Source: a virus
DNA: 55,299 nucleotides
Direction: 5' to 3' (one strand)
Virus record (IMG/VR): IMGVR_UViG_3300025138_010082
Span: 1 to 55,299 of that record
Below the pieces are notes generated by a model. It made no database searches and was not told the origin of the DNA. It worked only from the letters and a program-made list of their open reading frames with translations. A program made the translations under genes and the position numbers. Within the stretch, counting starts at the first letter, position 1, and the number at the start of each line of letters is the position of its first letter. Below are positions 20,657 through 48,652 of this stretch, piece after piece.

Positions 20657-22300
20657 TTATAATTTATTAGTTTTAGACACTAAAATATTATATTGGGGAA
20701 AATATAAATAATCAATATTAGTCCCAAGAAAACAATTAATAGCATGTTCTGGAGTTTCTACTATAGGTTCTCTATCATTAAAACTTGTATTTAATAAAAT
20801 AGGGACTCCTGTTTTTTTCTTCCATTTTTTAATGAAGTTATAATACCATTTATTACTTTTTTCTGTAACTGTTTGTAATCTACCAGTTCCATCTAAATGG
20901 ACTACTGCTGGGACTTTATCTTTTGCTTCTTCTTTAAAAGGTAATACAAAACTCATATAGGGACTTTCTATGTCTCTTACAAACCAATCTTTAACGTCTT
21001 CTTTTAAAATAGAGGGGGCAAAAGGTCTAAACCATTGTCTATGTTTAACTTTATCATTGATTAGATCTTTCATTTTAGGACTTCTTGGATCTGTAATGAT
21101 ACTCCTATTGCCTAATGCTCTTCTTCCTGATTCGGCCCCTTCATTAAATATAGATATTATATTTTGTTGATTTAATAAATCTAAAACTTGTTCATCTGTT
21201 GTTTTAGTATAGTTAATAGAGGGGTGTTTTAAGGCTTCTAAGACTTCTTCTTCATTATAGGATGTTCCTAAATAAGTAGGACTAACATCATCCCACTTTA
21301 CCCTAGGTTTATCAAGTATTTGGTGCCATACAAATTGGGCACTTCCTATTGAAAGACCACCATCATAAGGTACGGGACAAACATACATATTTTTAACCCC
21401 AAACCAATCATACATTTTACCCATCATTACAGAATTTAATACTACCCCGCCTGCAAAGCATATATTTTTGGGGTTATATTTATCTATAAAAGGTTTTATT
21501 ATTTTATAAGCTACCTTTTCAGTTGCTAGTTGAATAGATGCCGCTACATCAAATTTCTCTTTTTCACTTTTTTCTATTAAAGGTTTATATTTTTTAACAT
21601 TAGCATAAGTAGGGGCACTAGGTCCACCTCCCCCCTTTAAAAAGGCATCATAAAAGTCTTCCCAATATTTAGGGATTCCCGCAGAGGCCATAGCCATTAC
21701 TGTTCCCCCCGCAAAACCATGGGGATGACCATCTGATAGGCCAAATAAATCCCTAGTGTAAACCCTCCAAGGTGAACCCAAGGTTAATTCACCCATTGGG
21801 ATTCTTTTTATTGGTTTTATTTTATTTCCTTTACCTTCCCAAAAAGTAAATGCTGTTGAAAATGTATTTGAATTGTCTGGTTCATTAGTTATATCGTTAG
21901 GATCTGTTTTTTCAGTGCCACTACCATCTATAGTTATAATTAAAGCTTCATCATAATTACTAGAAAAGAAAGCATTAGCTGCATGAGCTTGGTGATGTCC
22001 TATAACAAAATACTCTCCACCATTTTCTTTTAAAATTGATTTCATTATGTCCTCAGCTTCTTTTTTTCCGCATTGGGGTTGATATTTCCCCCCTCTACCC
22101 CCTGGATTTCCGTGAGTAAAATACTTAATATTATTTAAGTCGGGTAATCTTTGCAAAGCCATTTCTAATCCATCTCCTAAGGGTTCTTTTTCCCTAATAA
22201 ATCTTTCTAATTCTTCATGTATAATAGGTATACCATTTTCTAATAAACAATAACTTACATCATGGCCTGATTGAAATCCTAAAATCTTGTCTGTTTTCAT
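20657..22300 (-). CDS. Carbamoyltransferase (NodU/CmcH family)
   Basis: A 547-residue enzyme that carbamoylates hydroxyl groups of sugars or antibiotics using carbamoyl phosphate and ATP. N-terminal Kae1-like domain: GFQSGHDVSYCLLENG, GHHQAHAANAFFSS (metal His), ITIDGSGTE, FAGGVVLNSVM. C-terminal YrdC-like carbamoylation domain: AESGRRALGNRSIITDPR, FRPFAPSIL, LLNTSFNDREPIVETPEHAI. Full length for the family. With the sulfotransferase and methyltransferase it forms a decorating set for the phage-made glycan. Confidence 0.93.
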   Translation of the reverse strand: MKTDKILGFQSGHDVSYCLLENGIPIIHEELERFIREKEPLGDGLEMALQRLPDLNNIKYFTHGNPGGRGGKYQPQCGKKEAEDIMKSILKENGGEYFVIGHHQAHAANAFFSSNYDEALIITIDGSGTEKTDPNDITNEPDNSNTFSTAFTFWEGKGNKIKPIKRIPMGELTLGSPWRVYTRDLFGLSDGHPHGFAGGTVMAMASAGIPKYWEDFYDAFLKGGGGPSAPTYANVKKYKPLIEKSEKEKFDVAASIQLATEKVAYKIIKPFIDKYNPKNICFAGGVVLNSVMMGKMYDWFGVKNMYVCPVPYDGGLSIGSAQFVWHQILDKPRVKWDDVSPTYLGTSYNEEEVLEALKHPSINYTKTTDEQVLDLLNQQNIISIFNEGAESGRRALGNRSIITDPRSPKMKDLINDKVKHRQWFRPFAPSILKEDVKDWFVRDIESPYMSFVLPFKEEAKDKVPAVVHLDGTGRLQTVTEKSNKWYYNFIKKWKKKTGVPILLNTSFNDREPIVETPEHAINCFLGTNIDYLYFPQYNILVSKTNKL

Positions 22301-23600: not shown

Positions 23601-24361
23601 TTATATAATTCTTTATATGTTCTTTCCATCCAATAATCTACATGTCTATTATTGGGGGGTATAGCATTAAAATGATAGATCCACCCTGCTTCTAAAAACC
23701 TTAATTCATCGGGGAACCAAGAATGTCCAGGAATATGTAGAAGATTTTTTCGAAATAAATCTTGAAGATTATAAGCCTCAGGCATATATATTGTATTAAC
23801 AGAATTTTGTTGAGTCAAATAATTTATAATAGTTTGGTCGGTTCCTGCCTTTATTTGTTCATTTAATTGGTTTATTTTGATTATATTAGCAGTATAATAT
23901 TCTTGAACTTTAGTGTAAAAGGGAATGTGTTTTTTACTTGTTATTTGAAAACCACCATTAAAATATTTCCATGGTTTAACTTGAGGTTCATTAGGAAATA
24001 AATTGTCTCCCCATTGTTTAATACTTCTAGTTGTCCACTCATAACACCCATTATTAACTACTACTCCAAATTTACCTTCTGTTTCATTAAAAAAATTAGG
24101 ACAATCTGGGTGTATAATAGTGTCAGCATCAACTATTAATACTTGTTCATATTCTACTTCATTATGTTTTAATATGTCATGAACCCAATAACGTTGTAAT
24201 GTTATTTTAAATTCATTGGGATCCATAATAGGTTCATCCCATTCTATAACTTTTACATCATCATATTGTTCTGACCATTTTTGCCAACTTTTAACAGAAT
24301 AATGGTAAGGGGTATTTCTGTCGTTTCCTGTGTTTATGTTTGGTATAAAAATTATATTCAT
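23597..24361 (-). CDS. Putative GT-A glycosyltransferase
   Basis: A 254-residue protein with VLIVDADTIIHPDCPNFF, a classic DxD metal site, and later KYFNGGFQITSKKH and AGTDQTIINYL, the pattern of GT8-like and related retaining enzymes where the second acid and donor-loop lie. It overlaps neighbours by four bases at both ends. Confidence 0.7.
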   Translation of the reverse strand: MNIIFIPNINTGNDRNTPYHYSVKSWQKWSEQYDDVKVIEWDEPIMDPNEFKITLQRYWVHDILKHNEVEYEQVLIVDADTIIHPDCPNFFNETEGKFGVVVNNGCYEWTTRSIKQWGDNLFPNEPQVKPWKYFNGGFQITSKKHIPFYTKVQEYYTANIIKINQLNEQIKAGTDQTIINYLTQQNSVNTIYMPEAYNLQDLFRKNLLHIPGHSWFPDELRFLEAGWIYHFNAIPPNNRHVDYWMERTYKELYK

Positions 24362-26502
24362 ATTCTATTAATTAATTCTAAAAGATTTGTAGGTTTAATT
24401 TGTGCATTATGTTTGGGTAATAAATCTAATTCATCTAAACCATAAACACTTTCTAAATCAATTAAACTGTATTCTCCATTAGGTAATTTAATTATATTTT
24501 GAGGTACTATATCATAATATATTTTATTCCATTTTTTACAGTTTCTTAATATTGTAGTTAAAAAATCTTGGGGGATACTTTGTGGGTGAGATCCTTCTTT
24601 ACAAATATATCCTACTAAATTTTTTCCATCATAAATTAAATCAGTTAGTGCTGGACATAAACCCACTAAAAATCCCGAATTTAAGGCTTCCTTAAAATTA
24701 CTCAATCTACAATATTTTGGATTAAATATTTTTATATAACTTTTGTGTTTTTCATCGTAAAAAACATTTCTTCCGTGGTTAATACCATCTACTATTCTAT
24801 CATATTTATTTATAATAGTTTTTAAATTATTAGTGCTTAAATCCTGTAGTTGTACTTTATTAACATAATTTACTCCCCATTTATAAAAATTAAAATTAAA
24901 AGGGTATCCTTTATGATTATTATTAAAAAATAATTCTATTGCTTTCCAATCTGATATATCTCTTTCGGTTGATCTGTTTTTTCGTGCAAAATAAAATCTA
25001 GGTTCTAAAAAATTATAACCATCAATTTTAATACAATAGTTTTTTAAAATATCATCATCTCCTTTAGCTCCAAAATAATTAAATTTTCCCCTATTAGCAT
25101 CAAATACATCTACACCTGGGGGGAATTGTATATTTTTATCTCTTAGTTTACTAGAAATAATGATATCTAAATCATCATTATCTCTGATACCCATTATACT
25201 TAAAATAGAACTTTGAGTTAAACAATAATCATCTCTATTTATTCCTATTTTATCCATTTTTTCTAATAATTTAATTTTATTAGTTAATGGTTTAATTCTA
25301 TGCTTACCATCACGTTTTCTAGGTTCAGAATATATTTGTGATGTTTTCATATAAAATGGTATATATGGCTTACCGCTAATCAGTCTACCAATCATAGCAC
25401 ACGCTCTATGGTAATTATGTCTAATATACCCATTATCAAATTCAACAGGATTATCTTTTAAGAATTTTTCTATATCAGAATCTGTCATAGGTTTAAGATC
25501 ATTATAATAATGTTCAGTCATATTTTCCCAACCTAAATCATGATGATCCCCCACATTATGTCTAAATTCAGCCATCATACAGTTATAATATTGCCAATTT
25601 TCTGGCTTTAATTGATTTTTAACATATTCTAAATTAGAAGGAGAGGAGAAATAATTAATTATATCCTTTATTGTTTTTAGGGAACCATCTTGTTTTATTA
25701 TTTCTTTACCACCACCACCTTCAGCTAATTCCATATTTAAAAAATATTCTAAATTAATTGGTTGGTATTTAGGAGTTTTTAATTTTTTACTTTGTTGTTG
25801 TCTCCATTTTTTCATTAATTTAAACCAAGGATTATTATCTATATCATATTCAATGTGTGTAAATTCAAAATTATTTTTCCACGCAGTATAATTAAAACTT
25901 AATTGATCTCTTTTACTACCATATTTTACCTCATTCCACCAATCTTCCATTGTTTTTATAACATCCGGTTCGTTATGTTTTCTTATAAGAATAGTATTTC
26001 GAGTTAATCCATTTTTAGAAGGATATCCATCTAGTTTATACCTTTTTATTTGATCATTTATTATATTTAAATTATCTTTATAATGTTTTTGAGGATGATT
26101 ATCCCCTAACCACTTAATAAAAGCTGCTTCATCGTAAACACAATTTCTTCTATTTAAATTTCCTGTAGATATACCACATAACTCATGGTTGAATGCTGCA
26201 TAGTTACTGGCTTTTAAATGATCATATATTAATGTAGTTATATCTGAGGTAATTTTTATATCTCCATCTATCCATATACTAACATCATAGTCTTTTAAGT
26301 ATCTATGAGGTAGTATTTTAGGTTTTTTAGAATCTCTAACCCCATCATATATTTTTGTAGTTAATTTAATATCCCACACATCTGATTTATAGGAGGGATT
26401 GTCTGTAAAACAAATAAAATCAAACCCTTCTAATTTTACTTCAGGATCATGTAAAAAATAATTATCTCCAAATACTGAAGTATATATAACTTTTTTATTC
26501 AT
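24358..26502 (-). CDS. Multidomain glycosyltransferase - nucleotidyltransferase-like - kinase-like fusion
   Basis: A 714-residue protein, largest in the glycan cluster. Residues ~1-230 resemble the DUF616/TOD1-type glycosyltransferase: KVIYTSVFGDNYFL, GFDFICFTDNP, KILPHRYLKDYDVSIWIDGD (DxD at 79-81). The middle (~280-430) is unrecognised, with GYIRHNYHRACAMIGRLISG. Around 445-480, LTQSSILSIMGIRDNDDLDI looks like a minimal nucleotidyltransferase or LicD-like site. The end (~600-690) has kinase-like features: YYDIVPQNIIKL and YSLIDLESVYG as catalytic-loop and metal-site analogues. Only the N-terminal call is firm; the others are by-eye motif matches. The fusion could activate and transfer one sugar in a single polypeptide. 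Confidence 0.6.
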   Translation of the reverse strand: MNKKVIYTSVFGDNYFLHDPEVKLEGFDFICFTDNPSYKSDVWDIKLTTKIYDGVRDSKKPKILPHRYLKDYDVSIWIDGDIKITSDITTLIYDHLKASNYAAFNHELCGISTGNLNRRNCVYDEAAFIKWLGDNHPQKHYKDNLNIINDQIKRYKLDGYPSKNGLTRNTILIRKHNEPDVIKTMEDWWNEVKYGSKRDQLSFNYTAWKNNFEFTHIEYDIDNNPWFKLMKKWRQQQSKKLKTPKYQPINLEYFLNMELAEGGGGKEIIKQDGSLKTIKDIINYFSSPSNLEYVKNQLKPENWQYYNCMMAEFRHNVGDHHDLGWENMTEHYYNDLKPMTDSDIEKFLKDNPVEFDNGYIRHNYHRACAMIGRLISGKPYIPFYMKTSQIYSEPRKRDGKHRIKPLTNKIKLLEKMDKIGINRDDYCLTQSSILSIMGIRDNDDLDIIISSKLRDKNIQFPPGVDVFDANRGKFNYFGAKGDDDILKNYCIKIDGYNFLEPRFYFARKNRSTERDISDWKAIELFFNNNHKGYPFNFNFYKWGVNYVNKVQLQDLSTNNLKTIINKYDRIVDGINHGRNVFYDEKHKSYIKIFNPKYCRLSNFKEALNSGFLVGLCPALTDLIYDGKNLVGYICKEGSHPQSIPQDFLTTILRNCKKWNKIYYDIVPQNIIKLPNGEYSLIDLESVYGLDELDLLPKHNAQIKPTNLLELINRI

Positions 26503-28044: not shown

Positions 28045-28528
28045 ACATACCTAATTCTTCAGCGGCATCCATAAAACATAATTTGTCATAACGTTTTAAA
28101 TTTTTCATATCCATTCTAAATTTATAATTAGTTCCTTGATTACGTGGATCAGGATATTTATCTTGTTCTTCTTCAGGTATGGGAACAGCTTTAACTACTG
28201 TCCACCCCCAATCATCTGTTCCTTTAATAGGTTCTGGAAAAACCATACCTTGTTCTGGCATTGTAATTGCTGTGGGGAACCATGCTAATACCTCTCCACC
28301 TCCTGGAGGTTCATGATCTTGTCTTAAATCTTTAATTAAATCTGCTGTAAGTTCTAGGGTTTGTTTTAATCCTTCACTGTCTAAAGTCATTGTAGTATTT
28401 GAAGTGTAACCACTAGTCATACAAAGCCATGTTTTTATTGGTCCCTCTGCCGTTTGAAATTCTGATTCATAACATGCGTCACTATCACAAATAGGGCTGT
28501 TTACTAATTTATCTTGTGTCATTTCCAT
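28016..28528 (-). CDS. Hypothetical phage protein
   Basis: A 170-residue protein with paired cysteines (SPICDSDACYESEF, TWLCMTSGYTSNT) that could bind a metal, an aromatic centre (VLAWFPTAITMPEQG; GTDDWGWTVVKAVPIP) and a helical end. I recall similar proteins in marine T4-like phages without a function. It sits inside the glycosyltransferase run but shows no enzyme motif. Confidence 0.55.
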   Translation of the reverse strand: MEMTQDKLVNSPICDSDACYESEFQTAEGPIKTWLCMTSGYTSNTTMTLDSEGLKQTLELTADLIKDLRQDHEPPGGGEVLAWFPTAITMPEQGMVFPEPIKGTDDWGWTVVKAVPIPEEEQDKYPDPRNQGTNYKFRMDMKNLKRYDKLCFMDAAEELGMFAKPVTSED

Positions 28529-29838
28529 TATGCTTCTATTTTTTTAAGTTTTGGTAATTTTAATTTAGGTAATTCTTGTTTTTTACTTCCTACTTTTTTA
28601 AGTTTGGGAAGTTGTAGTTGTTGCATTTGAGGTGCTACTTCTACTTTAGGTAAAATATTAGTTAATTTTTCGGTCATTTTATCAAATGTCCAGTTGTCTT
28701 TAATATATTGTGTTTGTTTACGTGATTTTTCCCAATATTGTTTATAATTTTTAAACACATCCTTCATAGCTCTACTTGCTATGTTTTTATCTATTGTAAA
28801 CCATTGTGAATTTTCAAGTAAAAAATCATTAGCAGATGATTTATGTACATTTTTTAATTCACCCCCAATTAAAACATTGTAATTTGGATGTATAAAATCA
28901 GTGTGTCCACTCCAATTAGATACAATTACAGGTTTACCTGTTATTGCTGCTTCTGCTAACGGTCTACCATAACCTTCACCTTTTGTAAATGACACAAATG
29001 ATTTTACTTTATTGTCATTATTTAATTGATTCATTTCATCATCAGTCATTTCACCATGTAAAAGGTATATGTTAGGAAGAGTTTCTGTAAATTTATCTCT
29101 TATATTATTTATGTTTTTTAATACTCCTTCTCTATCTAATAAAGAATAATTTATTTGATTACATTTTAATACTAATGCTGGTTTTTTCTTTCCAGGACCC
29201 TTAAATGTGTCTAAAAAAGTATGAATTAATGTTGCAACATCTTTTCTATCTTCACCAAAATTTCCAGGTAACCAATGTCCCGTGAATAAGAAACAAAAAT
29301 CTTCTTTTACATCTTTAAGTAATTCTGAATTTTGTGGTTTTTTATAATACTTATTTAAATCTAAACCTTCAAATAATATTTCAATTGGTTTTTCTAATTT
29401 AATAACACCTATTGTTTGGTTAGTTTGTTTGTCTTTTTTTTCAAATTGTGTTGCTAAAGCAATGTCTTTTGAATGTTTAGAACTAACTAAATTTAAATCC
29501 ATTTTATTACTACCTTCAATAAACTCAGAAGGATATATTGTTGTTTCAATACCCGCTGTTACTCCTATATTAAACTGCCCCACTGGTTGAAATTCATTTG
29601 GGACAGTAATTTGTACCCAAATGTCTGGTTTTTTATCTAACCCACCTATAAAACGTTGTCTTAAAGGATCATCTTGTGATAAAAAATTCCAAGGACAATC
29701 GCCCCACCTTTGTGGTAAGATTTTAATGTCCCATTCTTCTTCTTTTGATTTTATTAATGATTTCACAAAATCTCTTGATCTTGCTCCATAACCTGAAAAC
29801 GTGTCAATTGGACACGATACTACGCATAATGGCTTCAT
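28528..29838 (-). CDS. GT4-type glycosyltransferase
   Basis: A 436-residue GT-B enzyme. The N-terminal domain starts CVVSCPIDTFSGYGARSRDF (acceptor half, glycine-rich loop). The donor half includes FCFLFTGHWLPGNFGEDRKD, the loop FVSFTKGEGYGRPLAEAA with the E-x7-E-like donor site, and GKPVIVSNWSGHTDFI. The last ~40 residues are a repeated LPKLKK-type basic tail of low complexity, possibly for membrane or partner contact. Confidence 0.85.
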   Translation of the reverse strand: MKPLCVVSCPIDTFSGYGARSRDFVKSLIKSKEEEWDIKILPQRWGDCPWNFLSQDDPLRQRFIGGLDKKPDIWVQITVPNEFQPVGQFNIGVTAGIETTIYPSEFIEGSNKMDLNLVSSKHSKDIALATQFEKKDKQTNQTIGVIKLEKPIEILFEGLDLNKYYKKPQNSELLKDVKEDFCFLFTGHWLPGNFGEDRKDVATLIHTFLDTFKGPGKKKPALVLKCNQINYSLLDREGVLKNINNIRDKFTETLPNIYLLHGEMTDDEMNQLNNDNKVKSFVSFTKGEGYGRPLAEAAITGKPVIVSNWSGHTDFIHPNYNVLIGGELKNVHKSSANDFLLENSQWFTIDKNIASRAMKDVFKNYKQYWEKSRKQTQYIKDNWTFDKMTEKLTNILPKVEVAPQMQQLQLPKLKKVGSKKQELPKLKLPKLKKIEA

Positions 29839-31298
29839 ATTGATTGTATTTCTTTTAAAAATTCTGGTGTTAAACTAATTGGTGATGGATTATAGTTGTC
29901 TAATTTAGTAGAATCATCTACTTTAGTAACTGTAAATCGAGATTGTGGTTTCCACTCTGTAAGTAAATTATCTATATTGTCTATAAACCCTTGACCCATT
30001 CTTTTTGCTGTGAATCCTGACTCATCTGACAATACCCACTCTCTACCCGCAAGTCCTCTTTTTGTTCTTTCTTCGGGACCCATTTTATATGTTTTCATTA
30101 AAGCAATTGCTGCATCTTCAACCGAACATTGACTTGCAAAAATATAGGGTGTTGATGGTGAACCTTTTACTGAACGTGTTTTGGGAAATATAGGCATTGC
30201 CCATTTACCACATTTTTTATATTTACCATCTGCGTTTGATGGGTGTTCTGTTGAAAAATCAATCCAATCACCATTTTCATCTTCAAAACGCATTTGATCT
30301 TGCATACCACCCTGTACTGGTGCTATAATCATTCTACCTGCTGTTAAGGATTCGGTTAAACCTAATCCCCAACCTTCATTGTCTGTCATAAACATATGTG
30401 CGTCTGAACAATTGTATAGATAATTTAATTGTTTTTCATCAAAACGTTCATTAATAATTTTTACTTTATGGATTTCTGGATCACATAAACTGTCAATTAC
30501 AGCATGTAGGTCAGTTCCATGTTCAAATGATCCTTCTGTTTTCATTAATAATGTACATTTTTTAGCTTTTTCAACTGGTAGTTGATCTAAAAATGTTCTC
30601 CACGCTAAAATAATGTCTGATTGATTTTTTCTTCTAATATTTCTAGAAAGATGTAGTACTACAAAATCCTTATCTTCTTCTAAAATTCTTTCTTTAAAAG
30701 CTTCAAATTCAAAATCATTTACTACAGGGAAATATTTTTTCTCATCTATACCGTGGGGAACATACTGTACACGTCCATGTTTTGGGTGGTCTCTTAAAAC
30801 ATTTTTTACTAAGTTTTTAGTTTGTTTAGAAATACAAAGTAACATATCATCTGAACGATAAAATTCTCTGTTCCACATTGGGTAAGGTAAATCATCCCAA
30901 ATTGTATAAAAAATTAATGGACATTGTTGTCTTATTTCATTTTCCATTTGATACATCCATGTCCAATAACGAGGATCTGTAAAGTGTACTATTGCATCTG
31001 GTTTTTCTTGAGTTATTAAAGATCTTAATACATTTTGATCACCATAACCATTACATGCTATAACTTTAACATTTGCATCCTTTAAACCTGTCATTCCATT
31101 TACATCAGCGGATATGTCAAATCCTTTCCCGTGGTCGGGGTGTTTAACAGCTCCTCCTAAATTAACCCAATTAAAACGGTGTGCTGTGTTTAGTATGATT
31201 TCTTTTGCCATATTTCCTACACCCGAAGTTGTACGAATATCGTCAGAAAGCATAAAAATTGTTTTACGTTGATCCCTTGGGATGTAACCTTCTTTCAT
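29835..31298 (-). CDS. GT4-type glycosyltransferase
   Basis: A 487-residue GT-B enzyme, first gene of the glycan run in transcription order. IFMLSDDIRTTSGVGNMA is the N-terminal glycine loop; VLHLSRNIRRKNQSDIILAW begins the donor half; MTDNEGWGLGLTESLTAGR and IIAPVQGGMQDQM are the nucleotide-sugar site. It overlaps the following glycosyltransferase by four bases, suggesting the pair act in sequence. Confidence 0.88.
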   Translation of the reverse strand: MKEGYIPRDQRKTIFMLSDDIRTTSGVGNMAKEIILNTAHRFNWVNLGGAVKHPDHGKGFDISADVNGMTGLKDANVKVIACNGYGDQNVLRSLITQEKPDAIVHFTDPRYWTWMYQMENEIRQQCPLIFYTIWDDLPYPMWNREFYRSDDMLLCISKQTKNLVKNVLRDHPKHGRVQYVPHGIDEKKYFPVVNDFEFEAFKERILEEDKDFVVLHLSRNIRRKNQSDIILAWRTFLDQLPVEKAKKCTLLMKTEGSFEHGTDLHAVIDSLCDPEIHKVKIINERFDEKQLNYLYNCSDAHMFMTDNEGWGLGLTESLTAGRMIIAPVQGGMQDQMRFEDENGDWIDFSTEHPSNADGKYKKCGKWAMPIFPKTRSVKGSPSTPYIFASQCSVEDAAIALMKTYKMGPEERTKRGLAGREWVLSDESGFTAKRMGQGFIDNIDNLLTEWKPQSRFTVTKVDDSTKLDNYNPSPISLTPEFLKEIQSI

Positions 31299-36360: not shown

Positions 36361-36564
36361 TTATTTTTTAAAAAATTGTTTACAAAATGATATACAAAAC
36401 CAAAGAAGTGCTATTGGCCAAATTACAACCGCTATTAATCTTTGGTCCCACCCCCAATCTACATTAGGGGTGAGATAATTTTTTTCTTTAAGCTTAGTCA
36501 TTACTATATCCATTATGAATATAAAAGCAAAACCTACAAATATATAATTTAATATCATATCCAT
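36361..36564 (-). CDS. Small membrane protein
   Basis: A 67-residue protein with two hydrophobic spans (ILNYIFVGFAFIFIMDIVM and LIAVVIWPIALLWFCISF) around a polar loop containing NVDWGWDQR. It lies between groEL and gp44 with single-base contacts on both sides. Function unknown. Confidence 0.6.
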   Translation of the reverse strand: MDMILNYIFVGFAFIFIMDIVMTKLKEKNYLTPNVDWGWDQRLIAVVIWPIALLWFCISFCKQFFKK

Positions 36565-38195
36565 TACATTCCTCCCATCATTGCCATAGGATCCGCTTCA
36601 TCTTTACTCTTAGGATCATCGACTATTGTACATTCTGTTATTAACATTGTTCCTGCAACTGACACTGCATTTTCTAATGCTGTTCTTGTTACTTTTGTTG
36701 GATCTATAATACCTTCTTTAATCATATCCACATATTCTTTAGTTTTAATATTATAACCTAAAAAATTACCTTCTACATTAGATAAAATACTATGATACTT
36801 GTCAATACCTGCGTTTTTAAGAATCTGAATGAATGGCTTTTCAATAGCATTCATTAATATTTCTGACCCAATTGCTTCATCACCTTCACAAATTAGTTGA
36901 TTAGCTGTTTGTAATCTGTTTTTAGCTTCTAACAAAGCAACTCCACCACCTGCAACAATACCTTCATCTAAGGCAGCTCTTGTAGCATGTAATGCATCGT
37001 CAACTCTATCTTTCTTTTCTTTCATTTCAGTTTCAGTAAATCCACCTACATTAATTACAGCAACACCACCAGCCATTTTAGCTAATCTTTGTTGTAATTG
37101 TTCTACTGCGTAATTACTGTCTGCTCTTTCGATTTGATCTTTAACTTCTTCTAAACGAGCTGTAATTGCTTCTTCAGTACCACTACCGTCTACAATAGTT
37201 GTTCTTTCTTTTTCAATTGTAATTCCCCTTGAAGTACCTAATTGGTCAAAGGTAATTTTATCTAAACGATGTCCTTTTTGTTTAGAAATAACTGTACCGC
37301 CTGTTAAGACAGCAATATCTTCCAAAATGTGGGTTCTTCTTTCTCCAAAGTCAGGTGCCTTAACAGCACAACATTTTAAGATACCTCTCATTTTATTTAC
37401 AATCATAGCTGCTAATGCTTCACCATCAATATCTTCTGCAATAATAAGCATTGATTTGTTTTGTTGTGAAACTCCTTCTAAAATTGGTAATAATTCTTTT
37501 ACTTGACTAATTCTACCATCATAAATTAAAATATACGGATCATCTAACTGTGCTTGCATTGTTGAGTTGTCAGTTACAAAATATGGTGATTTATAACCTC
37601 TGTCAAATTGCATACCTTCAACCGTTTCTAATGTTGTTTCATATGATTTACTTTCTTCAACTGTAACAACACCATCTAAACCTACTTTATCAATTGCAGC
37701 AGCAATTAAATTACCTACTTCTTCATCATTATTAGCTGAAATAGTAGCAACTTGTTTAATTTGTTCTTCTGATGCAATGTCAGTAGACATTTCTTTTAAA
37801 TGTTTAACAATTTCTTTAGCTGTTTTATCCATACCTCTCTTAATAGCAACTGCATTGTGTTTTTGAGATAAATTTGTATGGTTCATACCTTCTGCAATTA
37901 ATTCTTTAGCTAGTAATGTGGATGTTGTTGTACCATCACCTGCTGTGTCACCTGTTTGAATAGCTGCTTGTTTTACCATTTGTGCACCTAAATTTTCAAC
38001 TGGATCCTTTAATGTAACTGTTTTTGCAACTGTAACACCATCTTTAGTTGATTGGGGTAAATTGCCACCTTGTTGTGCAATTATTACGTTACGCCCATTT
38101 GGTCCTAAGGTTACAACAACTGCATTTGCTAATTGTTCAACACCACTTAATAATTTTGCTCTTGAATCAGAGCCTGTTTCGATAATTTTACTCAT
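36564..38195 (-). CDS. groEL: GroEL chaperonin
   Basis: A 543-residue full-length chaperonin. [16 protein letters not shown] (nucleotide P-loop), [20 protein letters not shown] (catalytic Asp region), [20 protein letters not shown], and the end [10 protein letters not shown] with the GGM tail are all as in bacterial GroEL. It folds proteins in the cytoplasm with GroES. The ATG overlaps the groES stop in ATGAGTAA. Having both parts of the chaperonin is uncommon in phages; T4 itself encodes only the co-chaperonin gp31. Probable use: folding the major capsid protein. Confidence 0.97.
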
Positions 38196-42380: not shown

Positions 42381-42548
42381 TTACACAAGTTCTTCAATTA
42401 TTCCTACTACTTCACTTAAAATTAAAAATGTAGTAGCCCAAAGTAAATTAAATGGTATACATGCGTATCCTGCTATGCGAATACCTGATTTAACAAAGCT
42501 AATTTGTTGGTGTAATTTAGGATCTGGTAGTTTATCTAAGTTCTTCAT
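42381..42548 (-). CDS. Small membrane protein (55 aa)
   Basis: Translated by hand: 55 residues, starting MKNLDKLPDPKLHQQISFVK, then one hydrophobic region (YACIPFNLLWATTFLILSEV) and IIEEL at the end. It overlaps the MazG-like gene by 17 bases and precedes the polymerase promoter. Real by size, charge pattern and fit; function unknown. Confidence 0.6.
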   Translation of the reverse strand: MKNLDKLPDPKLHQQISFVKSGIRIAGYACIPFNLLWATTFLILSEVVGIIEELV

Positions 42549-43065
42549 CTGTAAAAAATTGTTTTAAATCTGGTGCAAAATAATTAATTGATTTCATTAC
42601 TTTTCTATCACTTGAACGATATACTACATAACGATCTCCTACTTGTTCCCAATGACATGGGTGTCCTTTTTCTAAAGCTCTTACTTTAACTGTTTCTTCA
42701 GCTATTTCTTGAGTTTCACATGATTTAGACATATTTGAAGCTTGTACCTCTTGATATGCTTTCCAAATTTTACCTTTTAAACCATGTAATAAAGTTCCGT
42801 TACCTAAAGAAACATAAGTAATATCACATAATGCATCTAATATTCCTACTATGTCTCCTTTTTCACAAGCTTCTTTATATTCTTCTAATTCTTCAAGAAT
42901 AAAATCATACACAAATTGCCATTCTTTCTTTTCACCAATTATTGGTTTATAATTGTTTGGTTTGCCGAATGTGTCATTAAATTCTTGTACTTCATCTACA
43001 AATGGTACTTCCCAATATTTAGGGCCTAATTCTGAATCTTTAAATAATTTTAATTGTTTACCCAT
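42532..43065 (-). CDS. MazG-like nucleotide pyrophosphohydrolase
   Basis: A 177-residue protein. EVQEFNDTFGKPNNY, FVYDFILEELEEYKEACEKG (the E-x2-E-x-x-E metal motif) and LDALCDITYVSLGN (D...) match all-alpha NTP pyrophosphohydrolases found in phages; EVQASNMSKSCE is a typical later block. It may clear non-canonical or excess nucleotides or adjust the alarmone pool. The C-terminal region (HWEQVGDRYVVYRS) is an added beta part. Confidence 0.8.
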   Translation of the reverse strand: MGKQLKLFKDSELGPKYWEVPFVDEVQEFNDTFGKPNNYKPIIGEKKEWQFVYDFILEELEEYKEACEKGDIVGILDALCDITYVSLGNGTLLHGLKGKIWKAYQEVQASNMSKSCETQEIAEETVKVRALEKGHPCHWEQVGDRYVVYRSSDRKVMKSINYFAPDLKQFFTDEELR

Positions 43066-43265
43066 TATTCTAAAATTTTAATAATTTTTGATTCTTTTAC
43101 TGATTTTACTTGGTAATCCATTGAATAACCTTCAAATTCTTTTACTACTTTAGCTTCCGCTTCTGTAACTGATTCTGCTTCAACACAATATGTTTCATTT
43201 GTGTTTGAAACTCTACCTCTTTCGTTCTCGTCTTGAACTTTTACTGTTGCAATGTAATATGACAT
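43065..43265 (-). CDS. DUF4494-like protein
   Basis: A 66-residue protein: YYIATVKVQDENERGRVSNT, then ETYCVEAESVTEAEAKVVKE, FEGYSMDYQVKSVKESKII. This order fits DUF4494, a small family known chiefly from Bacteroidota and their phages. No function is known. It is a useful host clue and overlaps the MazG-like start by one base. Confidence 0.7.
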   Translation of the reverse strand: MSYYIATVKVQDENERGRVSNTNETYCVEAESVTEAEAKVVKEFEGYSMDYQVKSVKESKIIKILE

Positions 43266-43442: not shown

Positions 43443-43955
43443 TTAATTTAAATTTATATATAATTTTCGATTTCTAATATACATTCTACCTGTAGGGATT
43501 TTATTTAATTCTCTACCTTGTAGATCGTATATTTTATTGTTTTGGATATTATTAAATGTTAATTCTTCAATACCCATAGGTGAGTCTGTATTATTTACTC
43601 TTGCCCATCTTAGAGAGTCTACATCCCAAGCTAGATTAAAACAGCAATTTAACGTGTCAGGTTGATTAAACCATGTTATGTAACTTACACACGTTGTGAG
43701 TGTATCTGCTAATCCAGGGTTTAAAACAACATGGAGGCATGAGCTACCACTAAACTGTAAACAACTGTCTGAACCTAAAATTAAATTGTCAGCGAATGTG
43801 AGCATATACACAGGTGTATACATATCTGATATAGGTTCTACAGTTAAAATCTCCTGGTCCCAATACAGATCTATAATTATTGAATCACATATTGTGGTTT
43901 GTGCTTGTGTTTGTAGTCCAAGCGAAACTAATAATACTACTAATAATTTTTTCAT
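43443..43955 (-). CDS. Secreted protein with type IX secretion sorting tail
   Basis: A 170-residue protein. Signal peptide MKKLLVVLLVSLGLQTQAQ with cleavage near residue 19. The middle (residues ~25-125) is a beta-rich, cysteine-containing domain I cannot name (e.g. SCLQFSGSSCLHVVLNPGL). The last ~35 residues, QNNKIYDLQGRELNKIPTGR then MYIRNRKLYI, match the type A C-terminal sorting domain of the Bacteroidota T9SS (I/V-Y-D-x-x-G-R). The protein would pass the inner membrane by Sec and then the outer membrane by the host T9SS. It may alter the infected cell surface. Confidence 0.75.
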   Translation of the reverse strand: MKKLLVVLLVSLGLQTQAQTTICDSIIIDLYWDQEILTVEPISDMYTPVYMLTFADNLILGSDSCLQFSGSSCLHVVLNPGLADTLTTCVSYITWFNQPDTLNCCFNLAWDVDSLRWARVNNTDSPMGIEELTFNNIQNNKIYDLQGRELNKIPTGRMYIRNRKLYINLN

Positions 43956-43971: not shown

Positions 43972-44661
43972 TTATATATTATGTCCTCCGTTATTAATCT
44001 TCAGACTGTCAAAAAATTCTTTTCTTGATAAATTGTTGTTTTCTCTAAATACACCTGATGCTTTTGTTGTAACCATAGCAGCACCTTGGTGTTTTACACC
44101 TCTACAAGACACACAATTGTGAGTGCCTACAATAGTAACAATTACTCCTTTATTACCTTCGGTGATTTGTGATACAGCATTGTGAATTGCTGATGTTAAT
44201 TGTTCTTGAATGGCTCCTCTTCTACTAAATAGTTCTACAATTCTATTCAACTTAGATAAACCAATTACTTTACCTTCTTCTCCAGCAATATAACCAATAT
44301 GAACCACCCCACCAATTGTTTGGTGGTGGTGTGAACACATTGAAGTTAGTGGAATGTTTCTTTCGATTACAATTCCATCGTAACCATCGGAAGGGAAGGA
44401 AGTAACAGGTGACATTGCAGTGTATCTACCAGCCCACAAATCATTAACATAGGCCTTAGCTACACGTCTCGGTGTGTCAGATGAATTTGGATCATTTTTC
44501 CAATCACATTTTAATGCATCTAAAAAATTACCAAAGGCTACAGTGGCCTCTTCGATTATTTTTTCTTTTTCTTTATCTTTTAAGGGAAAACCAGGTGCTA
44601 CACCATTTGCAAAACCTTGTTGTACTACTTCTAAATTAAATGTTTTTTTCTCTTCTGCCAT
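43972..44661 (-). CDS. folE: GTP cyclohydrolase I
   Basis: A 229-residue FolE1 enzyme converting GTP to dihydroneopterin triphosphate, the first step of folate and 7-deazaguanine synthesis. IERNIPLTSMCSHHHQTIGG holds the zinc Cys109 and the catalytic histidines; HNCVSCRGVKHQGAAMVTT supplies the second zinc cysteine region. LSKLNRIVELFSRR and QEQLTSAI are as in the family. It lies in one operon with queD, queE and queC, so its product probably feeds queuosine-type base synthesis rather than folate. Confidence 0.93.
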   Translation of the reverse strand: MAEEKKTFNLEVVQQGFANGVAPGFPLKDKEKEKIIEEATVAFGNFLDALKCDWKNDPNSSDTPRRVAKAYVNDLWAGRYTAMSPVTSFPSDGYDGIVIERNIPLTSMCSHHHQTIGGVVHIGYIAGEEGKVIGLSKLNRIVELFSRRGAIQEQLTSAIHNAVSQITEGNKGVIVTIVGTHNCVSCRGVKHQGAAMVTTKASGVFRENNNLSRKEFFDSLKINNGGHNI

Positions 44662-45170
44662 TATAATACGTGTATTGTGTCTAAATTTCTACTATATCCT
44701 TTGGGGCCATCCATACCATATCCTATATACCATGGATTAACTCCCTCTGGTTGTTTATATATAAAAAAGTGGTTTGGGAAATCCAAATTTTCTTTATAAA
44801 CTGCTGAAACTGTTTCAATTTGTTTTGCTCCTAATTCTTTATAATGGTTTTTTAAAGCATTTAATGTGTTTCCACTGTCTAAAATATCATCTATAAGAAA
44901 TACTGTTTTGTTTTCTATATTTGTTTCAATATCATAATGAATTTCGAGTGATTTTTGTTCTTGACCACTATATGAACTACATTTAATAAAATCAACTTCA
45001 ATAGGATAATTTATGTGTTTTACTAAATCGCTAGAAAACATAAATCCACCTTTCATAACACAAACAAACACAATTCCACCTCCAATTTCATGACATTTGT
45101 CTGTTAATGTTGTTCCCAGATCTTTTACTTGATTTTCTAATTGTATTTTGGATATTAATTTTTTACTCAT
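44661..45170 (-). CDS. hpt: Hypoxanthine-guanine phosphoribosyltransferase
   Basis: A 169-residue purine phosphoribosyltransferase joining hypoxanthine or guanine to PRPP. VCVMKGGFMFSSDLVKHI, KCSSYSGQEQ (flexible loop) and VFLIDDILDSGNTLNALK (PRPP motif) match Hpt; the end ...VNPWYIGYGMD is typical. It lies between folE and queE, so it may salvage guanine from host DNA into GMP/GTP for the deazaguanine pathway. An unusual possibility is a modified-base salvage role. Confidence 0.9.
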   Translation of the reverse strand: MSKKLISKIQLENQVKDLGTTLTDKCHEIGGGIVFVCVMKGGFMFSSDLVKHINYPIEVDFIKCSSYSGQEQKSLEIHYDIETNIENKTVFLIDDILDSGNTLNALKNHYKELGAKQIETVSAVYKENLDFPNHFFIYKQPEGVNPWYIGYGMDGPKGYSRNLDTIHVL

Positions 45171-45300
45171 TTTCTTCTATAAACTTTTTTAATTTTTCAA
45201 TTAATGTTAATACTTCATCAGGTTCCATAGTTACAGCACAGCAAATATTTACATTTTCTGTAATTTCCTCTAATACTTCTAATGCTTCTTCTTTAGACAT
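45163..45300 (-). CDS. Small hypothetical protein (45 aa)
   Basis: Translated by hand: 45 residues starting MSKEEALEVLEEITENVNIC, with a CC pair and an acidic helix. The ATG follows the queE stop as TAATG and its stop overlaps the hpt ATG as ATGAGTAA. That double overlap makes a real gene likely. Function unknown. Confidence 0.6.
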   Translation of the reverse strand: MSKEEALEVLEEITENVNICCAVTMEPDEVLTLIEKLKKFIEENE

Positions 45301-46076
45301 TATACTTCACGTTGGTCTTCAAAGGCTATAATGTGGGGTCTCCAAGTCATTCTATAACCATTATCTCTAACCCAATCAAATACTAAAGGGTAGGATTTAA
45401 ATAATCCTTCTCTTGAATCTCCTGCTGGCATAAACCATACTTTTTCAGGTTTAACTTCTAATATTGCAATACATTCCATAATCTCAGCCAGCGCCTCCTG
45501 ATCTTTACCATCCCACACAGGTTTAATATGATAATCTGAGTGATATGCAATTGATTGCTTTATAGCATCATAATTAAGTCTTTTTCTATTGTGAATGTCT
45601 ACGAATTTTTGGTCAACCACTTTCCCAGCTGGAGTAACAGTCCCCACAACAGGCACGGAATTACTAAACTTAGGGCTAATAGACAACAAGTTAATAGGAT
45701 AATCGGTTTCAACAAAATGAGATCCTTCAGTTTCGATAGTGATAAAAATATTTTTTTCATGTGCAAAGTGTGTTAATTCATTAACTAATTTAGGATGCAT
45801 TGTTGGAGAACCCCCAGTTAACATCATTTCTTTAATGTGAGGATTTTTATCATACATTTTAATAATATCATTAAAATTAAATGTCCCTTTTTCTGGGTGT
45901 ATACTAGTATACCAACTATCACACCAACCACCTTCACCAAAGTAACATCTGTGAGTACATCCGGTTGTTCTAATTACTACTGTGGGGTAACCTGCTCTAG
46001 ATCCTTCTGATTGTACTGCGGTGTAAATTTCTACAATGGGTAGATTTTTATTATAATCTTCTATTCTTTTACGCAT
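45300..46076 (-). CDS. queE: 7-carboxy-7-deazaguanine synthase (QueE), variant cluster motif
   Basis: A 258-residue radical SAM enzyme that contracts 6-carboxytetrahydropterin to 7-carboxy-7-deazaguanine. IVEIYTAVQSEGSRAGYPTV is the family start; RTTGCTHRC begins the Fe-S site and MMLTGGSPTMHP plus TIETEGSHFVE follow as in QueE. The cluster motif is C40-x3-C44-x7-C52 instead of the usual C-x3-C-x2-C, five residues inserted before the third cysteine (YFGEGGWCDS). Overlaps queC by eight bases. Activity is likely but should be tested given the insertion. Confidence 0.85.
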   Translation of the reverse strand: MRKRIEDYNKNLPIVEIYTAVQSEGSRAGYPTVVIRTTGCTHRCYFGEGGWCDSWYTSIHPEKGTFNFNDIIKMYDKNPHIKEMMLTGGSPTMHPKLVNELTHFAHEKNIFITIETEGSHFVETDYPINLLSISPKFSNSVPVVGTVTPAGKVVDQKFVDIHNRKRLNYDAIKQSIAYHSDYHIKPVWDGKDQEALAEIMECIAILEVKPEKVWFMPAGDSREGLFKSYPLVFDWVRDNGYRMTWRPHIIAFEDQREV

Positions 46077-46929
46077 GTTTTGCTAATAATTCTGTTACAT
46101 GTTGTTTTGCTGTTTCCCATCCATCAATATATTCAACAGGGTCTTTTCTGTCTAATTTTAGAAATGCTTCTATTCTTTCTACAGATGAAGCTGATTTGTA
46201 ATCTGATCTTCCTTCTGCGTCTGGTTTGTATGAGGTGTTTGTTCTTTTATAAACTTCATCAAAATCTAAGTCTAATTTTTTACAACATCTTTCACCATCT
46301 TTTAAAATGTCAAATTTATCCCCATCTAAATAAGGTGTATAATATGTTACTTGTTCAGCATCCCAATTACCTTGTTTAAATGCTTCATAATCTGCATCTC
46401 TAAATTCTTGTCTACAGTCAGGGTAAATTGCATGGTCACCTGCATGAATACCCATTGCTATTTTTACTTCACATTCTTTTTGTTGAGCAACAGACAATGC
46501 TACTGCTTGGATAATAGATGAAAACATTTTATTTCTGTTAGGTACAACAGTGTCTTTCATATTATCTTCTTCATAATGACCTTCTGGAACATCATCACCT
46601 CCTTTTACTAAATTTGAATCTAAAAGAGAAACTAATCCTTGTAATGTAATTCTTTGATATTTTACTGGATAGCCAGCTTTATCAAGATATTCAATTAATT
46701 CTGCTGCTCTTTCTAATTCTACATTGTGTTTTTGACCATAATCAAAACTTAACGCTGTTACTTTATAATCGTTTGCTAACAGGTGTAATAATACTGTACT
46801 ACTATCCATTCCACCTGATAATGATAATACTGCTTGTTTTTTCATATTGTTATTTTTATACTCATACCAATTTGGGTTTGGTAATTCTGAGTAATGATCC
46901 CATAATTCTTTTTCTACTATTTCCGACAT
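46069..46929 (-). CDS. queC: 7-cyano-7-deazaguanine synthase (QueC) lacking the zinc cysteines
   Basis: A 286-residue PP-loop ATPase of the QueC family, which in standard form converts carboxy- to cyano-deazaguanine via an amide. LSLSGGMDSSTVLLHLLA (PP-loop, 35-52), SFDYGQKHNVELERA and VVPNRNKMFSSII are as in QueC. An extra ~28 residues precede the usual start. The C-terminal zinc site (C-x8-C-x2-C-x2-C) is replaced: residues ~229-256 read NTSYKPDAEGRSDYKSAS then SVERIEAF. The flanking residues still align (T...Y, VERIEAF), but serine, aspartate and other residues stand where cysteines are expected. The final product could be the amide rather than the nitrile; inference. Confidence 0.85.
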   Translation of the reverse strand: MSEIVEKELWDHYSELPNPNWYEYKNNNMKKQAVLSLSGGMDSSTVLLHLLANDYKVTALSFDYGQKHNVELERAAELIEYLDKAGYPVKYQRITLQGLVSLLDSNLVKGGDDVPEGHYEEDNMKDTVVPNRNKMFSSIIQAVALSVAQQKECEVKIAMGIHAGDHAIYPDCRQEFRDADYEAFKQGNWDAEQVTYYTPYLDGDKFDILKDGERCCKKLDLDFDEVYKRTNTSYKPDAEGRSDYKSASSVERIEAFLKLDRKDPVEYIDGWETAKQHVTELLAKHA

Positions 46930-47385
46930 TTATTTATTTAAATGTTGTTGTTTAGTTTCATGTTCCCAAATTCCATCTACTGTGTGTTCATGCCAATGTA
47001 TTCTACCTCCTAAAATAGCGTCTTTAATATTTTTCTGGTGGCCATTTAATTGTGAATTTCCACTTTTTACTTCAATAAAATGAACTGCACACTTTTTCTT
47101 GCTTCCTCTGTCTGAAAACGCTATATAATCAATTGGTTTTCCAAAAAATTGTACGTCTTTAGGGTTTACGGGGAAGCTTTTCATAAAGGGAACATAATGT
47201 TCAATTGTTTTTCCAAAACTTACTGCTCTTGATCTTGAATAAGCATCTTCTCGGATAGCTTTTTCTTCTTTAACTTTCCATTTTGCTAACATGGATTCTG
47301 CTTTTCTTTCTGCAATTTTATCGTGTGTAAAATAAACATATGCTGCGAAAGCTAAAGCACATATTGCGATTGTAATTGATATCAT
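46930..47385 (-). CDS. Holliday-junction-resolvase-like nuclease with membrane anchor
   Basis: A 151-residue protein. Residues ~1-20 form a hydrophobic segment (ISITIAICALAFAAYVYF). The rest resembles the Endonuc_Holl family, related to archaeal resolvase: GKTIEHYVPFM, NPKDVQFFGKPIDYIAFSD, HFIEVKSGNSQL (E-x-K catalytic motif), and Q-x-x-I...AIL later. It might resolve recombination intermediates or act near the membrane. It lies inside the deazaguanine operon, so a link to handling modified or unmodified DNA is possible but unproven. Confidence 0.65.
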   Translation of the reverse strand: MISITIAICALAFAAYVYFTHDKIAERKAESMLAKWKVKEEKAIREDAYSRSRAVSFGKTIEHYVPFMKSFPVNPKDVQFFGKPIDYIAFSDRGSKKKCAVHFIEVKSGNSQLNGHQKNIKDAILGGRIHWHEHTVDGIWEHETKQQHLNK

Positions 47386-48192
47386 TTAGTATAATTGAGT
47401 GTTACCATCCTGTATAAATTGTTTAAAACGGATGAGGTTGTGGTTAATGTTATATAATTTTTCTTGATCTAATGGTATTAGTCCTAATTTATCTATTTTA
47501 GTTGAAGATTTAGTAAATAAACCTACACTATTGTATTTTACTCCTTCTAACCCATGAATTATAGGGTTTGATGTGTCTACTGATTCAATAAAGGGAAAGT
47601 CAGCATAATAAGCAAATTCTTGTGGTAAAGCACACCCTAATAAATGTACTCTATCACTTTTGCTTATTAATCCTGATTTATACATTCTTGATATAGTCAT
47701 TATACGACCCATCATTTTACCAACCAAAGGATTTGGGTGAGGAAATTCATCACAATACCAATCAGCACCATAACTAAATGCTATTTTTTGGTATCCTTGC
47801 ATTTTTAAAACATTATAACATTCATAAGCTTCATGGTAACTTTGTGCTTGAACAACTGCTACTTTAGTTACTCCTTCTGGTAAATTTATTGATTGCCATT
47901 TTTTAGCATTAACTAATGTTGCTGTTTGATTTTGCCACACATCAGGTACTATAAATTCATCTGGTTCTAAACGTTCAATCCAATGTAGTAATCTTTTTGT
48001 GTCATATGCTTTACCTAATTCGTGAAGTGAATTGTCCATTATAATATAACTGCCTGCTTCTTTAGCATAAAGAAAATGATCTCTATACATTTCATTTTGA
48101 TCTAATAGATGAGGTAAACAGTACTCATAATCATTAATTTCAAAGCTCTTAGGGAGCATATTTACTGGTAACTCGTGTGATACTTTAAACAT
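47386..48192 (-). CDS. dpdA: DpdA-like 7-deazaguanine DNA transglycosylase
   Basis: A TGT-family protein; I start it at 48192 (268 residues), overlapping the queD stop in ATGTTTAA. IIMDNSLHELG (Asp53), EFIVPDVWQNQ (Asp84), VAVVQAQS, RVHLLGCALPQE (the TGT HLLG segment) and ESVDTSNPI (Asp206, nucleophile-type position) follow the order of the tRNA-guanine transglycosylase fold. Phage DpdA enzymes of this kind swap guanine in DNA for a deazaguanine base. Its place between queD and queC argues for DNA, not tRNA, as the target. It is much shorter than host TGT (~375 residues). Confidence 0.8.
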   Translation of the reverse strand: MFKVSHELPVNMLPKSFEINDYEYCLPHLLDQNEMYRDHFLYAKEAGSYIIMDNSLHELGKAYDTKRLLHWIERLEPDEFIVPDVWQNQTATLVNAKKWQSINLPEGVTKVAVVQAQSYHEAYECYNVLKMQGYQKIAFSYGADWYCDEFPHPNPLVGKMMGRIMTISRMYKSGLISKSDRVHLLGCALPQEFAYYADFPFIESVDTSNPIIHGLEGVKYNSVGLFTKSSTKIDKLGLIPLDQEKLYNINHNLIRFKQFIQDGNTQLY

Positions 48193-48652
48193 ATTTTTCT
48201 GAATAAATTGCTGTGTTTTTACCATGTTCCATAAATTCTACTGATTTAACTTGAACACGTTCATTAGTTTCATCTTTTACAAAATTATTTAATTTATGAA
48301 ATATAAATTCTGCAAATTTTTCTGCTCCTGTTGCTTTAACTGTTCTTAATTGAATTGTACCCTCTAAATCTAATGTTTGAAATGCGGGTAATTCAGGGTC
48401 ATCTATGGCTACTATAACTGTATGGTCAAACATCCAATCCATCCAATCTTTCGGCTGCATACCATCGATTAGTGTTTTTGCCCTCTTCATGCCACCAAAA
48501 TCCCAAACCCAATTGCGATCATCTAGTGTTCCTTCGAATGTTACTTTAAATGAAATACCATATCCATGTAAGAATCGGCAGTGTGTTGTGGTTGCTTTCC
48601 ATTGTCTAAAACAACAGGTAAAACCATCAAATATTTTTGTACTTTGAAACAT
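48185..48652 (-). CDS. queD: 6-carboxytetrahydropterin synthase (QueD), divergent metal site
   Basis: A 155-residue QueD/PTPS-family enzyme turning dihydroneopterin triphosphate into 6-carboxytetrahydropterin. THCRFLHGYGISFKV corresponds to the C...LHGHN block; VWDFGGMKRA to D-F-x-x-x-K; MFDHTVIV to the L-D-H block; VEFMEHGKNTAIY to the last acid. In E. coli QueD zinc is held by three histidines, two in LHGH. Here the second reads LHGY (Tyr31), and the early histidine position appears to be Cys14. I recall this divergent type from other phages, so it is likely functional. Confidence 0.8.
   Translation of the reverse strand: MFQSTKIFDGFTCCFRQWKATTTHCRFLHGYGISFKVTFEGTLDDRNWVWDFGGMKRAKTLIDGMQPKDWMDWMFDHTVIVAIDDPELPAFQTLDLEGTIQLRTVKATGAEKFAEFIFHKLNNFVKDETNERVQVKSVEFMEHGKNTAIYSEKYV

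What the first reader, a model, noticed from the sequence alone, without database searches (positions are those of the whole stretch)
43972..48652. Compact phage module for 7-deazaguanine DNA modification
folE, queE, queC and queD plus a TGT-like DpdA lie in one overlapping run on one strand. Seen: the family motifs of each. Known: FolE-QueD-QueE-QueC make preQ0, and phage DpdA proteins insert such bases in DNA to escape restriction. Inferred: this phage replaces part of its guanine with a deazaguanine. No QueF or amidotransferase is seen in the window, so preQ0 or an earlier intermediate is the likely base.
Basis: partly seen in the sequence, partly recalled or inferred. Interest (0 to 1): 0.8.

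Follow-up and report, generated by a model that had tools for sequence, protein, structure and literature searches.

The report
Phage guanine-replacement module with guanine-salvage enzyme
This fragment of an uncultivated phage carries the genes to make a 7-deazaguanine base and swap it for guanine in DNA, together with a purine salvage enzyme in the same operon that probably recycles the guanine thrown out by the swap.

Summary
The five genes are there, at the stated coordinates. They form one tight minus-strand operon, and the DpdA is real: a confident model matches tRNA-guanine transglycosylases and the solved bacterial DpdA. Its closest measured relatives are Campylobacter phages CP220 and CPt10, whose guanine is reported fully replaced by dADG, so extensive replacement is likelier than "part". 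The base (dADG or dPreQ0) cannot be settled from a 55-kb fragment. The PRTase is the new part. In dpdA-seeded viral contigs holding both queE and folE, 29 of 30 distinct modules carry a purine PRTase, HPRT-type or Gpt-type, never both. The two types swapped at least 8 times on the dpdA tree. In other phages (VpKK5, MMDA13) a Gpt-like domain is fused to FolE and annotated only as FolE. Best explanation: DpdA releases one guanine per exchange, and the PRTase returns it to GMP and so to GTP, FolE's substrate. CP220 lacks such a gene, so it is not obligatory. The module is a known kind; the recycling component is undescribed in the held literature, but the key 2023 paper on phage DpdA subfamilies was not available.

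The parts
48185..48652 (-). queD (6-carboxytetrahydropterin synthase), 155 aa
   Evidence: PF01242 1.5e-14; phrog_2389 6.8e-41
47386..48192 (-). dpdA (DNA guanine transglycosylase), 268 aa from the conserved start; the longest ORF begins at 48225
   Evidence: 36% to immuto DpdA, 34% to CP220 gp056; AlphaFold pLDDT 94.5; Foldseek best PDB hits TGT and bacterial DpdA 7ui4, probability 1.00; Asp53 and Asp206 invariant in 46 homologues
46930..47385 (-). PF10107 Endonuc_Holl-like nuclease with an N-terminal hydrophobic segment, 151 aa
   Evidence: PF10107 4.2e-31; in 16 of 86 loci, directly beside dpdA; EVK signature kept
46069..46929 (-). queC, 286 aa, lacking the four zinc cysteines
   Evidence: PF06508 1.5e-38; SGGMDS, YGQKH, VPNRN, YPDC read directly; zinc columns not Cys
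45300..46076 (-). queE (radical SAM), 258 aa, cysteines spaced Cx3Cx7C
   Evidence: phrog_2076 6.6e-54; spacing shared by 133 sequences
45163..45300 (-). 45-aa ORF of unknown function overlapping the queE stop and the PRTase start
   Evidence: read directly from the sequence
44661..45170 (-).
   Evidence: PF00156 9.7e-19; best NCBIfam HGPRTase 6.5e-31, below its curated cut-off; best PDB hits HPRT/HGXPRT, 1.4e-21; catalytic motif conserved
43972..44661 (-). folE (GTP cyclohydrolase I), 229 aa
   Evidence: PF01227 4.5e-43
43065..43265 (-). DUF4494 protein, frequent downstream neighbour of the module
   Evidence: PF14902 2.9e-9; neighbours
42532..43065 (-). MazG-like nucleotide pyrophosphohydrolase, frequent downstream neighbour of folE
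   Evidence: PF01503 2.7e-9; 46 of 57 HPRT-seeded loci, 52 of 80 Gpt-seeded loci

Best explanation
This is a DpdA-dependent 7-deazaguanine DNA modification module of a T4-like phage, probably of a Bacteroidota host. FolE, QueD, QueE and QueC turn GTP into ADG/preQ0; DpdA then exchanges guanine in phage DNA for that base, probably at most or all guanines. Each exchange frees one guanine. The embedded purine PRTase (HPRT-type here, Gpt-type or a Gpt-FolE fusion elsewhere) joins that guanine to PRPP, giving GMP, which kinases return to GTP for FolE. This recycles the purine and removes the product that could reverse the exchange. Shown here: the genes, the DpdA fold, catalytic residues, operon conservation, the HPRT/Gpt exclusivity and the fusion. 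Inferred: the DNA base, the extent of replacement, and the recycling role. Separate confidences: DNA modification 0.92; extensive replacement 0.7; PRTase functionally part of the module 0.9; role is guanine recycling 0.6.
For: DpdA: 46-sequence AlphaFold model pLDDT 94.5; Foldseek top hits TGT and 7ui4 DpdA; homologues in CP220 and CPt10, reported to carry 100% dADG (PMC8306585). Module: order conserved across viral contigs. PRTase: dpdA-seeded distinct loci holding both queE and folE carry HPRT 22, Gpt 7, none 1, both 0. An HPRT-only query returned 57 viral contigs, 56 with folE/que/dpdA genes nearby; four checked contigs whose held stretch lacked dpdA encode it elsewhere. A Gpt-type alignment query gave 71 of 80. 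HPRT stop to folE start lies within -20 to +80 bases in 68 of 74. HPRT/Gpt type changes 11 times on the dpdA tree, at least 8 forced by starred branches. A Gpt-like domain is fused to FolE in VpKK5, MMDA13 and Stenotrophomonas phage ply2008005c with motifs intact, and the same domain lies under FolE annotations in Pseudomonas and Xanthomonas phages. The Asp that by my alignment corresponds to human HPRT Asp137, known generally to contact purine N7, is invariant, which favours true purines over 7-deazapurines. At 30% G+C a 170-kb genome holds about 51,000 guanines.
Against: CP220, with reported full replacement, has no PF00156 gene, nor do MA9V-3 or Youna2; partly modified phages 9g, CAjan, nt-1 and HVTV-1 lack one too, so phage-encoded salvage is not obligatory. 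Hosts normally have their own purine PRTases. GMP is two phosphorylations from FolE's substrate, so the fusion cannot channel directly. In 9 of 80 Gpt-seeded loci no core gene lay in the held DNA. The PRTase scores below the HGPRTase equivalog cut-off. No biochemical test exists.
Confidence: 0.65

Rival explanations
1. The PRTase acts on the 7-deazaguanine base itself, making a nucleotide that is reduced and polymerised as a modified dNTP, so modification happens before replication.
For: A modified-dGTP route was proposed for the Campylobacter phages (PMC6884629 discussion). RNR genes lie directly upstream in the window.
Against: A full transglycosylase with invariant Asp residues is present, making a nucleotide route unnecessary. 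The PRTase keeps the Asp that in HPRT binds purine N7, which 7-deazapurines lack.
Confidence: 0.1
2. The PRTase is a general purine-salvage gene for phage nucleotide supply, with no mechanistic tie to base exchange.
For: The neighbourhood also holds RNR and a MazG-like gene.
Against: These PRTases are tied to deazaguanine genes (56 of 57; 71 of 80), the HPRT-type is rare in 50,697 phage records, the type is repeatedly replaced in the same slot, and a Gpt-like domain is fused to FolE.
Confidence: 0.2
3. The genes raise queuosine in host tRNA rather than modifying DNA.
For: FolE/QueD/QueE/QueC feed the Q pathway too; such a role was suggested for phages lacking DpdA (PMC6884629).
Against: A DpdA homologous to a protein of fully dADG-substituted phages is in the operon, and the small protein shows no CxCxxC zinc site of tRNA TGTs (sequence).
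Confidence: 0.04

Closest known systems
DpdA-type protein of Campylobacter Firehammervirus phages (CP220, CPt10); from memory the 'DpdA3' subfamily of Cui et al. 2023, NAR 51:9214
   Same: Homologous transglycosylase (34% over 82-85%) of similar short length; shares QueD and QueC
   Different: CP220 genes are scattered, it has no PF00156 PRTase, and its QueC keeps the zinc motif
Flavobacterium phage vB_FspM_immuto (Immutovirus)
   Same: queD, queE, PRTase, folE, DUF4494, MazG-like, dpdA in one block; zinc-less QueC
   Different: PRTase is Gpt-type, and it carries QueF and a formyltransferase-like gene
Phage modules with longer DpdA (CAjan, 9g, VpKK5, MMDA13)
   Same: Same base pathway plus a DpdA; VpKK5 and MMDA13 also have a Gpt-like domain, fused to FolE
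   Different: DpdA of VpKK5, MMDA13 and CAjan is not matched by the profile of this family; 9g and CAjan modify about 27-32% of G (PMC6884629) and have no PF00156 gene
Hypoxanthine-guanine phosphoribosyltransferase (cellular HPRT)
   Same: PRPP motif, catalytic Asp and C-terminal WYIGYGMD region kept
   Different: Separate phage group, below the TIGR01203 cut-off, tied to folE

Membership tests
DpdA (DNA guanine transglycosylase) | TGT-like fold | tested here: met
   pLDDT 94.5 model; Foldseek probability 1.00 to TGTs and to DpdA 7ui4
DpdA (DNA guanine transglycosylase) | Conserved catalytic aspartates | tested here: met
   Asp53 and Asp206 invariant in 46 sequences; the HLLG...SxD region aligns with 7ui4, weakly (E 0.24)
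DpdA (DNA guanine transglycosylase) | Base exchange in DNA | not testable with these tools
   Needs LC-MS of virion DNA or an in vitro assay
DpdA3 subfamily (complete replacement) | Homology to the CP220/CPt10 protein | tested here: met
   33.7-34.9% identity, E to 3e-34; that this protein is the published DpdA3 is assumed from memory, not read
DpdA3 subfamily (complete replacement) | 100% replacement of dG | not testable with these tools
   Reported for CP220/CPt10 (PMC8306585), unknown here
QueC (PF06508 cluster 1) | SGGxDS, YxQxH, VPxRN and YPDC motifs | tested here: met
   Read in window QueC, motifs as listed in PMC13329287
QueC (PF06508 cluster 1) | C(x)8CxxCxxC zinc motif | tested here: not met
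   All four columns non-Cys in the window; only 3 of 145 sequences have CCCC. A QueC variant, not a canonical QueC
HPRT (TIGR01203) | Score above curated cut-off (150 bits) | tested here: not met
   107 bits, though it is the best-scoring family
HPRT (TIGR01203) | PRPP motif, catalytic Asp and purine-binding C-terminal region | tested here: met
   87 of 87 long relatives keep the PRPP motif; alignment
HPRT (TIGR01203) | Guanine/hypoxanthine phosphoribosylation | not testable with these tools
   Enzyme assay needed

The most novel reading that the evidence does not exclude
Phages that replace guanine by base exchange carry a dedicated guanine-recycling enzyme, recruited repeatedly from two different PRTase branches and sometimes fused to FolE, so that modification runs as a closed loop: GTP to deazaguanine, guanine out, guanine back to GTP.
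Probability: 0.55. Interest if true: 0.75.

Novelty: new variant of a known kind. Interest (0 to 1): 0.6.

Why it matters
If right, it answers a simple problem that the held literature does not raise: a phage that swaps tens of thousands of guanines per genome must also deal with as much free guanine, and with a GTP drain of the same size. It predicts a defined enzyme activity, suggests a genomic marker for heavily modified phages, and exposes a Gpt-FolE fusion hidden under the label "GTP cyclohydrolase" in cultivated phages where it can be tested.

Tried and rejected
Megablast of the central 12 kb against phage records: no match. Single-sequence DpdA search of bacterial genomes: no relative, so no cellular source was found. 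PDB sequence search with the DpdA profile gave only a weak 7ui4 hit (E 0.24), so structure was used. I considered the zinc-less QueC as a sign that synthesis stops at ADG and rejected it as diagnostic: CP220, which has dADG, keeps the zinc motif, while immuto, which has QueF and so presumably needs preQ0, lacks it. The QueF hit in Youna2 lies on its annotated folE, and hits in two viral contigs are below the cut-off and near folE, so they were discounted as same-superfamily signal. A single-sequence search with one Gpt protein found only itself; the alignment search worked. The NAR 2023 paper was not held, and no held paper found links a PRTase to this pathway in phages. The suspected T9SS tail of the 43443-43955 protein was not confirmed by NCBIfam.

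Full report
Observation. The window is a 55,299-base virus record, probably a fragment, at 30% G+C, with T4-like replication genes (PHROG: replicative helicase, UvsX-like recombinase, sliding clamp). Neighbouring genes abut or overlap by up to 8 bases. Within the run are also a PF10107 nuclease (46930-47385), a 45-aa ORF (45163-45300) and a PF00156 phosphoribosyltransferase (44661-45170), none of which was reported.

DpdA. Pfam has no match. Sequence relatives are the annotated DpdA of Flavobacterium phage immuto (36%) and hypothetical proteins of Campylobacter phages CP220, CPt10 and others (34%). The alignment puts the true start at 48192. A 46-row alignment gave a model with pLDDT 94.5; its best PDB matches are tRNA-guanine transglycosylases and the bacterial DpdA structure 7ui4. 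PMC8306585 states that 100% of dG is replaced by dADG in CP220 and CPt10, so extensive replacement is the better default for this branch. [quoted passage not shown] The base is thus most likely dADG or dPreQ0. QueF (PF14489) is clearly present only in immuto among the 23 records searched.

The PRTase. Its best PDB matches are HPRT/HGXPRT; its best NCBIfam family is HGPRTase, below the curated cut-off. Among 80 dpdA-seeded viral loci the order queD/dpdA/(nuclease)/queC/queE/PRTase/folE/mazG, or a shuffled form, recurs. Most loci without the HPRT-type have nearby a different PRTase, which immuto also has and whose PDB matches are Gpt/xanthine-guanine PRTases. After reduction to distinct dpdA groups, loci holding both queE and folE carry HPRT 22, Gpt 7, none 1, both 0; over all loci in hand none had both. 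Searches seeded with the PRTases alone returned contigs with deazaguanine genes in 56 of 57 and 71 of 80 cases; these lists are best matches only and share ancestry, so they are not independent counts. On the dpdA tree the PRTase type changes 11 times, at least 8 forced by starred branches (a quick tree with some long rows, so the number is approximate).

Fusion. A search with the immuto Gpt protein matched genes annotated as GTP cyclohydrolase in Vibrio, Sphingomonas, Stenotrophomonas and Pseudomonas phages. In VpKK5 (300 aa), MMDA13 (295 aa) and ply2008005c (297 aa) PF01227 covers only about residues 116-296, and the first 115 or so residues align with the Gpt proteins, keeping RGG, DDxxDSG/DTG and a WVVFPWE-like motif. 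Pfam does not call that N-terminal domain above its cut-off, so the assignment rests on the alignment and the tblastn match. The same domain lies under FolE annotations in further Pseudomonas and Xanthomonas phages and in unannotated Variovorax phage records. Brevundimonas phage MaInes has the PRTase next to folE, and Pseudomonas phage MIJ3 has gpt next to queE. In 50,697 phage records the HPRT-type appears in only 18, mostly unannotated records.

Mechanism. Base exchange by TGT-type enzymes releases one guanine per base inserted (established for the family). At this G+C a 170-kb genome has about 51,000 guanines; the genome size is assumed from relatives such as immuto (160 kb) and CP220 (178 kb). 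FolE consumes one GTP per deazaguanine made. A guanine PRTase would close the loop and remove the leaving base. The Asp that in HPRT contacts purine N7 (general knowledge) is invariant, which speaks against a 7-deazapurine substrate. The role is inferred, not shown. It is not universal: CP220, MA9V-3, Youna2, 9g, CAjan, nt-1, HVTV-1 and EC151 have no PF00156 match; as the fusions show, that model can miss Gpt-like domains.

Other features. QueC of this clade lacks the C(x)8CxxCxxC zinc cysteines in all but 3 of 145 sequences; the window copy keeps SGGxDS, YxQxH, VPxRN, YPDC and the tyrosine of the zinc region that PMC13329287 reports as essential. QueE has Cx3Cx7C spacing. The QueC change does not predict the base.

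Verdict. Observation confirmed. The module is of a known kind; it is a variant through its conserved purine PRTase, with recycling as the favoured role. Main limit: the 2023 NAR paper that, from memory, defines the phage DpdA subfamilies could not be read, so novelty of the PRTase link is judged on the held literature only.

Noticed in passing
L229:5998-6900 (VpKK5 orf32), L230:5989-6876, L231:5754-6647: Gpt-like PRTase domain fused to the N-terminus of FolE, annotated only as GTP cyclohydrolase in cultivated phages
   Followed up: yes
window 46069-46929 and 142 of 145 QueC sequences in hand: QueC without the four zinc-binding cysteines; 135 of 145 have a TSYKP...SDYKSASSVER-type motif instead
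   Followed up: partly
window 45300-46076: QueE with radical-SAM cysteines spaced Cx3Cx7C rather than the usual Cx3Cx2C, in 133 sequences
   Followed up: no
window 46930-47385: PF10107 nuclease with an N-terminal hydrophobic segment, directly after dpdA; could act on unmodified DNA, untested
   Followed up: no
L107:9033-9686 and relatives: A conserved protein of about 170 aa with no Pfam match lies near dpdA, usually just upstream, in 59 of 86 loci (not in the window)
   Followed up: no
window 43443-43955: Secreted-looking protein whose C-terminus resembles a type IX secretion tail, hinting at a Bacteroidota host; not confirmed by NCBIfam
   Followed up: partly
window 20657-22300, 24358-26502, 28528-31298, 36564-38195: Nol-like carbamoyltransferase, three glycosyltransferases and a GroEL in the phage
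   Followed up: no
L104: The one distinct locus with queE and folE but no PRTase found in its 13 kb
   Followed up: no
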